From contig CAMBBS010000026.1 in NCBI GenBank assembly GCA_945863875.1, positions 1 through 59,504 on the forward strand: DNA of 59,504 bases. The letters run 5' to 3'. Below are positions 57,936-59,504 of the stretch, piece by piece. A model generated the notes under the pieces. That model ran no database searches, was not told where the DNA came from, and was given only the letters and a program-made list of their open reading frames with translations. The position numbers were made by a program, and so were the translations under genes. Numbering within the stretch: the stretch's first letter is position 1; each line of letters starts with the position of its first letter. This stretch comes from Desulfopila aestuarii DSM 18488. GTDB lineage: Bacteria > Desulfobacterota > Desulfobulbia > Desulfobulbales > Desulfocapsaceae.

Positions 57936-58326
57936 AATTTTCTCCTCGGAATGATTAAATAGATACAACATGGCCTCAGCTGTTATCAGCACTGCGGAAG
58001 CCTCTTGTCTTTTCAGGAAGTGCCACTTTCGGGGAGCAAATTTTCCACGCCCATGGTGTTAAAATCTGCTTATTTTCAGTGAAACCTACGTGACCTCCTG
58101 TTTTAAGAAAATCTGGGAAAAAAGCAAGCAATTTTCCCTGCATCTTACCGCCGGAATCTCTGCCTAAGGCCTTAGGCCATGGAAAAAATTGGTATTTCAG
58201 CTGCGAGGTGAAATAACCCTCTCCCTCTCCTGGGAAAAACTCTCCTTACATTAGTTTTATTAGTTTTTCCCATAAGACATATTGATCGAAGGTGCGCTTC
58301 CATGGTAGGGTGCAAGAATCAGTTAC
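57936..58326. other. Non-coding gap with a 16-bp perfect palindrome
   Basis: No reading frame is seen between upp and the noncoding RNA. A perfect 16-bp palindrome, GCCTAAGGCCTTAGGC, lies at 58162-58177. The upp promoter must be at the left part. The right part is where the left end of the IscB-type element should be, but no terminal repeat or tnpA gene is visible. Confidence 0.5.
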
Positions 58327-58568
58327 ATGGACAGCATCGTAAGTCAACTACCCCGCCCTGAAAGACGGAGCTTGTGCAAGCAGGTTCCTCTGTTGACCAG
58401 GCACAGCCAGGGCCGTAAGGCTAACGGGCTGCGTTAAGAAAGAACAGAGAGGCACTCTGGAATGCTCCACCAGTTCCAGGCTCTGCGACAAGTGGTTAAA
58501 CAGGTTGAAGGGGTTAAGCCAGTGGTGCTGGTACAAAACCTTTCATTACCATTGCCGAGGTGGTTTTT
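58327..58568 (+). ncRNA. omegaRNA (HEARO)-like guide RNA upstream of an IscB-family gene
   Basis: This region directly upstream of the IscB-like gene folds into a chain of nested hairpins typical of the IscB-associated RNA. An outer stem GTCAAC (58343-58348) pairs with GTTGAC (58392-58397). CAGCC/GGCTG (58404-58431) encloses GCC-GTAA-GGC. CAGAG/CTCTG (58445-58485) encloses CTGGAA/TTCCAG. GGTT/AACC (58503-58540) encloses CCAG/CTGG. ACCA/TGGT is followed by a T-run to 58568. In IscB systems the guide lies 5' of the scaffold, so about 16 bases before 58343 are the candidate guide. Ends are approximate. The first hairpin after GTCAAC has two mismatches in its arm. Confidence 0.72.
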
Positions 58569-58604
58569 ACTCGCGAAAACGAAGAATTTTAAAGGCAACT
58601 TTCA

Positions 58605-59504
58605 ATGCAGCATGTGTTGGTCATAGACAAAAACAAAATGTTCTTGATGCCTTGTCATCCGGCAGGGGCGAGGGAGCTTTTGCGAAAGGGAAAAGCTGCT
58701 GTCTATAAAAGATGTCCTTTTCGTATCATTTTAAAAGAAAAGAGCGGCAGTGATGTTCAAGATCTTCAGTTAAAGCTCGATCCAGGGAGCAAGACCACAA
58801 CCATTGCCCTGGTGGCGGAGTGTCAGCAGGGCAGAAAGGTTGTTTGGGCCGGAGAGCTTACTCACCGTGGACAGGCCATCAGAGATAATCTCCTCTCGAG
58901 GGTGGACAATGTTTTTACCTGGGCGAAGCGTCTCATCAACTTTGCTCCAGTATCCGGGATGGTGGTTGATCTTTGTAAGCGGTTCATCAACATTCCTGCC
59001 CGGGCCAAAGCACCGTTAAAGGATGGTGGTGCAAGCAACTCGATTCGCCATGCCACCGGCGGCAGGTTGCAGGCATTCGGCCTGCAGGTTTCCTTCTGGT
59101 CCGGGGGAAGAACCACGTATAACCGGACGAACCAAAGCTACGGAAAATCCCATTGGCTTGATGCCGTTTGTGTCGGCGAAACAGGCGGGCGTGTCCATAT
59201 TCCGCCGGGACGGCAACCTCTTTATGTTTCTGCTGCTGGCAGAGGATCACGGCAGATGTGCCGGGTGGATACATATGGTCTTCCTCGAACGTCAGCGAAA
59301 GCAAGAAGAGTTGTCAATGGATGTAAAACCGGGGATCTGGTCAGAACACTGGTCAACAAAGGCAAAAAGCCCGGGACGTATGTTGGCAGGGTGTCTGTGC
59401 GAAAGTCCGGCAGTTTCAATATCAAGACAGAAGCGGGTACAATACAGGGGATTGCATGGAAACATTGCTCTCTTTTGCAGCGTGCCGATGGTTACAACTA
59501 CTAC
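58605..59504 (+). CDS. IscB-family RNA-guided nuclease lacking bridge helix and HNH domain (3' end cut by window)
   Basis: From the ATG at 58605 the frame is open for 300 codons to the window edge, with no stop. The N-terminal PLMP domain (FLMP at residues 13-16) is followed by RuvC-I with Asp59 in KLDPGSKTT. Residues 84-99 read ELTHRGQAIRDNLLSR, then jump to VDNVFTWAKRL, skipping the arginine-rich bridge helix (about 35 residues in IscB). RuvC-II is altered, with Asp122 where Glu is expected, and it runs directly into ARAKAPLKD (from residue 132), which in IscB lies after the HNH domain. RuvC-III is intact (His183 and Asp186 in KSHWLDAVCVG), as is the C-terminal GRGSRQMCRVD and KSGSFNIKT region. 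Full IscB proteins have about 400-500 residues; this would be about 305. A decayed IscB or a compact IsrB-like form are both possible. Confidence 0.82.
   Translation, partial: MQHVLVIDKNKMFLMPCHPAGARELLRKGKAAVYKRCPFRIILKEKSGSDVQDLQLKLDPGSKTTTIALVAECQQGRKVVWAGELTHRGQAIRDNLLSRVDNVFTWAKRLINFAPVSGMVVDLCKRFINIPARAKAPLKDGGASNSIRHATGGRLQAFGLQVSFWSGGRTTYNRTNQSYGKSHWLDAVCVGETGGRVHIPPGRQPLYVSAAGRGSRQMCRVDTYGLPRTSAKARRVVNGCKTGDLVRTLVNKGKKPGTYVGRVSVRKSGSFNIKTEAGTIQGIAWKHCSLLQRADGYNYY

What the first reader, a model, noticed from the sequence alone, without database searches (positions are those of the whole stretch)
58605..59504. Compact IscB-like protein without bridge helix and HNH domain, still in frame
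Seen: one open frame of 300 codons joins PLMP and RuvC-I (Asp59) to a RuvC-III and C-terminal region that match IscB, with two clean in-frame jumps: after residue 99 (bridge helix missing) and near residue 126 (RuvC-II tail and all of HNH missing). Known: IscB is the RNA-guided ancestor of Cas9 and uses HNH plus RuvC to cut; IsrB lacks HNH but keeps the bridge helix. Losing both, without any frameshift or stop, is not a described form to my knowledge. It could be a minimal guided DNA-binding or single-strand nicking protein, or a recent deletion derivative.
Basis: partly seen in the sequence, partly recalled or inferred. Interest (0 to 1): 0.9.

Follow-up and report, generated by a model that had tools for sequence, protein, structure and literature searches.

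The report
Shrunken IscB transposons at gene starts
The odd small protein is one of about 27 shrunken copies of a Cas9-ancestor transposon scattered through one bacterial genome, mostly sitting exactly at the start codons of host genes, where the copies keep an open reading frame but not the protein's sequence, perhaps because ribosomes must pass through them to express the host gene.

Summary
In detail: the 300-codon frame at 58605-59504 is an IscB lacking the bridge helix (108-bp deletion) and the RuvC-II end plus HNH (264+6 bp), behind an intact HEARO/omega RNA. An exact 149-bp overlap with contig C30 gives the full 309-aa frame and its stop. It is not a lone new enzyme. The same genome holds 27 copies of the element plus three right-end remnants: one full length, one cut by its contig end, 25 with lost parts; six share this double deletion. 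None of 14 congeners has the element. Amino-acid changes look neutral (N/S about 1; family-conserved codons hit as often as expected). Yet the frame is protected: no real stop in readable frames (about 9 expected), frameshifting small indels 0.14/kb against 1.4 and 1.0, shared deletions in frame in 6 of 7. Of 23 right ends, 18 abut an ATG opening a host ORF of 60 aa or more (36% of random ATGA sites do). I propose that copies persist as translated bridges into the downstream gene: frame selected, protein not. Position and frame protection are shown by sequence; the expression mechanism is inferred. A compact guided nickase or binder is unlikely.

The parts
58319..58342 (+). host leader next to the element; by the IscB precedent it would be transcribed as the guide (length about 16-24 nt assumed)
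   Evidence: inferred: flank immediately 5' of the conserved left end; guide role not tested
58343..59504 (+). HEARO/IscB element, deletion derivative; continues on contig C30 to its right end ..GTAATTTTAG just before a host ATG
   Evidence: left end shared by copies; exact 149-bp overlap with C30; right end on C30
58343..58570 (+). HEARO omega RNA
   Evidence: RF02033, 126.3 bits, gathering 83, E 8.5e-26
58605..59504 (+). IscB-derived open frame, 300 codons in window, 309 aa with C30
   Evidence: NF040563 147.2 bits, below cut-off 175
58614..58901 (+). PLMP + RuvC-I part (RRXRR), Asp59 kept, nearly invariant Gly66 changed to Thr
58888..58898 (+). junction 1: 108-bp in-frame deletion of the bridge helix, seen in 12 of 27 copies; exact point ambiguous through a short imperfect repeat
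58967..58977 (+). junction 2: 264-bp plus 6-bp in-frame deletion (RuvC-II tail and HNH), seen in 9 of 27 copies; Glu158 of the full-length copy becomes Asp122
59145..59177 (+). RuvC-III motif KSHWLDAVCVG, His183 and Asp186 kept
59178..59504 (+). C-terminal (TAM-interacting-like) domain, continues on C30
   Evidence: model; Foldseek to IsrB 8dmb and IscB 7xht; domain name from passages of PMC9581776

Best explanation
The window protein is the product of a non-autonomous, internally deleted copy of a HEARO/IscB element that spread in one genome. The elements sit just upstream of an ATGA that is usually a host start codon. The host leader then lies left of the omega RNA, the IscB frame runs through the element, and the host ATG follows the right end. 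Host transcription must now cross about 0.6-1.6 kb of element before the host ATG. I propose that the IscB frame is kept open because ribosomes translating it protect the read-through mRNA from Rho-type polarity and decay, and deliver ribosomes next to the host start. Nonsense and frameshift changes are therefore removed while amino-acid changes and in-frame deletions are free. Shown by sequence: copy number, deletions, start-codon position, frame protection, neutral amino-acid evolution. Inferred: the expression mechanism, mobilisation in trans, and the guide and TAM roles.
For: 27 ORF-bearing copies in one genome (27 rows after merging contig pairs). Of 23 right ends, 18 have ATG opening an ORF of at least 60 aa, a 19th has ATG at +3; 36% of 570 ATGA sites of the window do so (18 of 23, P 5e-5). 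Strict test (ATG, at least 100 aa, in-frame stop within 30 codons upstream of the joined site): 12 of 21 right ends with a left flank, against 34 of 570 ATGA sites. Pfam names eight host ORFs tried: ArgJ, NAPRTase, Mrp-type, CBS, Macro, SIMPL, CbiK, PilZ. Empty gcvPA/gcvPB-like junction (names from memory) in 7 congeners. Frame tests: stops 1 nominal, 0 real, 9.0 expected, other frames 15/10.2 and 10/11.2; private changes only, 1 nominal vs 5.4; small frameshifting indels 2 in 14,082 readable bases, 8 in 5,670 unreadable, 6 in 5,848 RNA bases; shared deletions 6 of 7 in frame, singletons 2 of 11 (tally by hand). N/S 0.90-1.12. Of the two readable small indels, L020's is compensated by a second deletion and L025 is a copy with no host gene after it.
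Against: Termination-reinitiation over 29 nt is weak in published tests (passages of PMC10666635), so direct coupling is doubtful for the -29 stop and polarity must carry the argument. L015 sits before a PilZ-domain ORF with its own ATG frame broken after 39 codons. Several copies before host ORFs have lost the element start codon (L022, L023, L028, L031) or the left end (L030, L040), though each still has some ORF of 40 codons or more ending near the ATG. L012 keeps an open frame with no host gene after it. For L022 and the L019+L014 copy the in-frame upstream stop is far (51 and 107 codons). Half of the unreadable indels are in one decayed copy, L034; without it readable against unreadable is 2/13,855 vs 4/5,084, P 0.048, and against unreadable plus RNA P 0.011. 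Unreadable stretches also show few stops (2 vs 5.7). The double-deletion copies taken alone hint at weak constraint (N/S 0.76). Several tests were devised after seeing the data, and copies are related and mosaic, so P values are guides. Other IscB loci do not always show the geometry: 15 of 46 have a downstream start within 60 nt, and 3 annotated plasmid loci show +69, a convergent gene and +94.
Confidence: 0.55

Rival explanations
1. The open frame is left over from selection on the source elements: a copy had to be translated, or make some IscB product in cis, in order to multiply, and inserted copies have had too little time to gather stops.
For: Shared deletions are mostly in frame and singletons mostly not, as expected if only in-frame forms multiplied. 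Shared changes also lack stops: 0 vs 3.9 expected.
Against: Changes private to one copy, which on this view arose after insertion, also avoid stops (0 real, 1 nominal vs 5.4, P 0.029) while N/S is 1.08; small indels are rare in readable frames but commoner in unreadable ones and in the RNA. Shared changes also have N/S near 0.9 and hit conserved sites freely, so no protein function seems to have been kept in the source copies.
Confidence: 0.23
2. The compact protein works as a minimal RNA-guided DNA binder or nickase.
For: Omega RNA intact, frame intact to a stop, Asp59, His183 and Asp186 kept, confident model, pLDDT 84.1, pTM 0.79, resembling IsrB 8dmb (TMq 0.72) and IscB 7xht (0.70). Six copies share the form. 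N/S 0.76 in these copies.
Against: RuvC-II Glu replaced by Asp, Gly66 by Thr, arginine-rich bridge helix gone. In IsrB, deleting residues of the linker that stands in place of HNH abolished nicking, and bridge-helix arginines contact the guide (passages of PMC9581776). Conserved codons are hit as often as expected across the copies. Other copies delete RuvC-I or shift the C-terminus instead.
Confidence: 0.08
3. Plain decay: dead transposon copies whose frames are open by chance.
For: Neutral amino-acid evolution; substitution rate in RNA and ORF alike; all 18 distinct ORF deletions taken together are not enriched for in-frame ones (8, 6 expected; tally by hand).
Against: Frame-specific lack of stops and frameshifting indels, with the two other frames and the unreadable stretches as internal controls.
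Confidence: 0.12
4. Assembly or sequencing artefact.
For: The window ends inside the element and several contigs break at these repeats.
Against: The same deletions are in several contigs with distinct flanks, some well inside contigs up to 163 kb.
Confidence: 0.02

Closest known systems
IscB / HEARO (OMEGA RNA-guided nuclease, RF02033, NF040563, PF14239)
   Same: omega RNA upstream, PLMP, RuvC-I and RuvC-III motifs and C-terminal domain; a full-length parent with HNH and bridge helix is in the same genome
   Different: bridge helix, RuvC-II Glu and HNH missing; below the NCBIfam cut-off; amino acids unconstrained across the copies
IsrB (HNH-less OMEGA nickase, 8dmb)
   Same: no HNH, about 300-350 aa, omega RNA, similar overall model
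   Different: bridge helix missing, RuvC-II Glu missing, and origin by deletion from an IscB of the same genome
Non-autonomous internal-deletion derivatives of transposons (MITE-like, IS200/IS605-type)
   Same: both ends conserved in most copies, many different internal deletions, dispersed copies
   Different: reading frame kept open and position before host start codons; the mobilising transposase is not identified
Translationally coupled gene pairs
   Same: upstream frame ends close to a downstream ATG; -4 overlaps are the commonest gene spacing (passages of PMC10666635)
   Different: the upstream frame is a transposon relic and ends mostly 29 nt before the ATG, longer than the published efficient range

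Membership tests
IscB | PLMP / RRXRR N-terminus with RuvC-I Asp | tested here: met
   PF14239 1.2e-28, residues 4-99; Asp59
IscB | arginine-rich bridge helix | tested here: not met
   108-bp deletion; Arg103 absent
IscB | RuvC-II Glu | tested here: not met
   invariant E158 replaced by Asp at the junction
IscB | HNH domain | tested here: not met
   264-bp deletion; no HNH match
IscB | RuvC-III His and Asp | tested here: met
   H309 and D312 of the full-length copy kept
IscB | omega RNA directly upstream | tested here: met
   RF02033 126.3 bits
IscB | curated NCBIfam score | tested here: not met
   147.2 under 175
IsrB | bridge helix kept, HNH absent, own lineage | tested here: not met
   HNH absent but bridge helix also absent; the deletion copies branch from full-length IscB of the same genome
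IS200/IS605-type mobile element | conserved ends, insertion without target duplication | tested here: inconclusive
   ends conserved; one empty site seen, with no duplication but 6 bp fewer than in congeners
IS200/IS605-type mobile element | mobilised by a Y1 transposase acting on its ends | tested here: inconclusive
   Y1 genes present in the genome, but the flanks of the four inspected here show only a short generic hairpin likeness
Active RNA-guided nuclease | guide-dependent cleavage or binding | not testable with these tools
   needs a biochemical assay

The most novel reading that the evidence does not exclude
HEARO/IscB elements can persist as 'translated bridges': placed between a host leader and its start codon, their frame is selected by the host gene to stay open while the encoded nuclease is free to lose any domain. 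This would be a way in which a nuclease gene is kept as an open frame for its translatability alone, and a source of in-frame, domain-deleted IscB variants on which new functions could be built.
Probability: 0.48. Interest if true: 0.75.

Novelty: new variant of a known kind. Interest (0 to 1): 0.6.

Why it matters
It warns that small 'domain-minimal' IscB proteins found in genomes can be by-products of frame-only selection and not functional minimal nucleases. If the bridge model holds, it also gives a testable account of how elements that sit at start codons avoid silencing their host genes, and of one way in which in-frame domain loss can build up in OMEGA proteins. The genome offers a natural deletion series of IscB in one background.

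Tried and rejected
Recurrent deletion at long perfect repeats: only four exact direct repeats of at least 9 bp exist in the full-length element and two were used; many junctions show short imperfect likeness, some hardly any, so shared deletions are more likely inherited or exchanged. Left and right parts of the element give conflicting groupings, suggesting exchange between copies; not tested formally.

Chance in-frame deletions: counting all 18 distinct ORF deletions (my tally by hand after merging contig pairs, taking 264+6 as one; left out are deletions that touch the start codon or lie upstream: 177, 375, 940, 199; losses of an element end; and all of 11 nt or less), 8 are in frame where 6 are expected, which is nothing; only the split between shared (6 of 7) and singleton (2 of 11) is notable.

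A general rule that other IscBs sit at host starts: 15 of 46 loci within 60 nt, five with a -4 overlap (ATGA or GTGA: L073, L079, L084, L087, L106), but most cyanobacterial ones not; left as a lead. Shine-Dalgarno enrichment in left flanks is modest: 7 of 21 vs 12 of 105, P 0.018. Control genomes rich in IscB: seven plus G042 searched; by eye about 50 of roughly 75 listed matches over the cut-off span the model end to end (list cut), whereas in G000 one match does, so the deletion burst looks unusual, though partial copies occur elsewhere too. Search for the compact form elsewhere: none in the 256 other genomes (order and class gave the same 257 genomes), where G042 has a full-length IscB; none in viral contigs, close relatives only; the 8 of 63 plasmid records listed all align in two pieces. 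Weak matches in 9 of 14 congeners (E 2.7e-6 to 9.7e-4, 31-43% identity) cover mainly the HNH region and are not this element. Phage matches (45 records, all under 60% identity) were not followed.

Papers: nine searches; I saw listings, and passages of PMC9755519, PMC9581776, PMC13180657 and PMC10666635. None of what I saw reports start-codon insertion or frame-only selection for IscB; the founding HEARO paper (Weinberg et al. 2009) is not held. From memory only, I believe it reported insertion at ATGA or GTGA, so the target preference itself may be known.

Full report
What is there. The window is the whole of contig C26 of a 4.69-Mb, 93-contig genome. The frame at 58605-59504 is open for 300 codons to the contig end. 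It matches RRXRR over residues 4-99 and the guided_IscB model at 147.2 bits, under the 175 cut-off. A HEARO omega RNA stands directly upstream at 58343-58570 (126.3 bits). The same genome has one full-length copy, C4:61641-62945, 435 aa. Against it the window frame lacks 108 bp and 264+6 bp, all in frame. The first loss removes the bridge helix, the second the end of RuvC-II and HNH; the RuvC-II Glu, invariant among the aligned relatives, becomes Asp at the junction. Contig C30 starts with the last 149 bases of the window exactly and carries the frame to a stop, 309 aa in all.

A family in one genome. A search with the window protein gave 62 matches in G000. I fetched 32 stretches. Mapping them to the full-length copy and merging five contig pairs by exact 149-bp overlaps left 27 ORF-bearing elements; C51 and C52 both overlap C43, so one of these two is counted only as a partial copy. 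One is full length (L018); one has no deletion up to its contig end (L029); the other 25 have internal deletions or lost an end. Three further right-end remnants came from a pattern search, one of them only 21 matching bases long. The double deletion of the window is in six elements (L009, L010, L011, L012, L017, L019), of which L012 and L017 have a further deletion and L019 is joined from two contigs. The bridge-helix deletion is in 12 of 27 and the 264+6 deletion in 9 of 27, combined with other deletions in a mosaic way (tally by hand). Of 14 other genomes of the genus none has the element (the weak matches lie mainly in the HNH region). The nearest relative in the order is 69% identical DNA over nearly the full length (G042) and serves as outgroup: full-length copies branch at the base, deletion copies form a derived set with conflicting left and right trees. 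In seven other IscB-rich genomes most listed strong matches span the whole model (list cut, counted by eye).

Protein sequence is not visibly under constraint. Changes counted against the majority sequence give N/S, relative to a neutral expectation with the same mutation spectrum, of 1.12 for private and 0.96 for shared changes, 0.95 in readable stretches, and 1.08 for private and 0.90 for shared readable changes after merging contig pairs. Codons conserved in at least 80% of 39 relatives are hit by 97 amino-acid changes where 85.4 are expected. The RNA part changes at about the same rate as the ORF. The six double-deletion copies taken alone hint at weak constraint (0.76). The full-length copy's own private changes are few: 3 amino-acid, 5 silent.

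The reading frame is under constraint. In stretches readable from the element's own ATG there is no real stop codon; 1 nominal stop-making change (it reads no stop in the actual copy) stands against 9.03 expected, P 0.0012, while the two other frames show 15 vs 10.2 and 10 vs 11.2. Unreadable stretches have 2 real stops, 5.7 expected. Small frameshifting indels: 2 in 14,082 readable bases, 8 in 5,670 unreadable bases, 6 in 5,848 RNA bases; readable against unreadable P 0.0012. Four of the eight are in one decayed copy, L034; without it the figures are 2/13,855, 4/5,084 and 5/5,586, P 0.048 against unreadable and 0.011 against both. Of the two readable ones, L020's 2-bp loss is balanced by a 334-bp deletion, and L025 has no host gene after it. 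Deletions shared by at least two elements are in frame in 6 of 7 cases, singletons in 2 of 11 (Fisher P 0.013; tally by hand).

Setting. The right end reads ..GTAATTTTAG, with one to a few changes in some copies, followed by ATGA (TTGA in L010, GTGA in the remnant L154). Of 23 right ends of ORF-bearing copies, 18 have an ATG there that opens an ORF of at least 60 aa (16 of at least 100); 36% of 570 ATGA sites of the window open 60 aa or more, P 5e-5. By a stricter test, at least 100 aa and an in-frame stop within 30 codons upstream once the flanks are joined, 12 of the 21 right ends with a left flank pass, against 34 of 570 sites. The in-frame upstream stop lies within 25 codons in 14 of the 16 that could be looked at; L022 (51) and L019+L014 (107) are exceptions, though in the latter the Pfam NAPRTase N-terminal domain begins at residue 10. 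Besides the 18, L010 has ATG at +3 (298 aa), L027+L037 opens 58 aa, L017 has a 374-aa ORF starting 56 nt on; L012 and L025 have no such gene. Of the remnants, L154 opens a 123-aa GTG ORF, L153 lies 22 nt before an ORF that reads like SmpB (name from memory), L152 opens 53 aa. Pfam on eight of the host ORFs names ArgJ, NAPRTase, an Mrp-type ATPase, CBS, Macro, SIMPL, CbiK and PilZ. The window copy precedes the CBS-domain ORF on C30. For one site, which I read as gcvPA/gcvPB from memory, seven congeners have the uninterrupted junction, in most of them with 6 bp between ..GAGGT and ATGA that the joined flanks of G000 lack; I cannot explain this.

Where the frame ends. For 16 copies with both own start and right end, plus L027+L037, the frame ends at -29 (10 copies), -6 (3), -55 or -58 (2), +26 (1) relative to the host ATG; L015 breaks early. 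The window copy ends at -29.

Mechanism. Host transcription must cross the element before the host ATG. A translated element frame would keep such a transcript covered by ribosomes; an untranslated one would invite polarity and decay. Published tests make reinitiation across 29 nt weak (passages of PMC10666635), so I put more weight on polarity than on direct coupling. That the frame is protected and the protein sequence is not is what the sequence shows; that the host gene is the selecting agent is inference from position. Mobilisation is unresolved: Y1 transposase genes exist but the ends of the four inspected do not clearly match.

Structure. The compact protein is modelled with confidence (pLDDT 84.1, pTM 0.79) except at 126-131 and 136-138, just after the second junction, and 214-217. 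It resembles IsrB and IscB, as does the full-length model. The RuvC core can therefore close in the model without the bridge helix; this says nothing of activity, and the alignment used contains full-length relatives, which favours the family fold.

Verdict. Observation confirmed; deletion-derivative reading supported; compact-enzyme reading unlikely; a frame-only, host-linked selection is the best present account, with moderate confidence.

Noticed in passing
L079, L084, L087, L106 (ATGA) and L073 (GTGA): In IscB loci of other bacteria the IscB stop overlaps the next ORF's start by 4 nt, some with a Shine-Dalgarno-like GGAG inside the IscB end; the target site may supply the IscB stop codon.
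   Followed up: partly
L031 (C5:34425-34996): A 572-bp deletion copy splits what I read as the gcvPA/gcvPB overlap; a frame that starts in the host leader 19 nt left of the element runs through it to -6 before the ATG.
   Followed up: partly
L020 (C10): A 2-bp loss and a 334-bp deletion together restore the frame, leaving a stretch read in another frame.
   Followed up: partly
G000 C4: Three element copies lie within 20 kb (61.6, 71.3 and 80.9 kb) in the same orientation.
   Followed up: no
private substitutions in all copies: A-to-G and T-to-C changes outnumber C-to-T and G-to-A (111 vs 77), against the usual bacterial bias (recalled).
   Followed up: no
L055, L056, L057, L059, L060: Short stretches like the element's left end in other genomes of the order without a match to the rest of the element, possibly other HEARO elements.
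   Followed up: no
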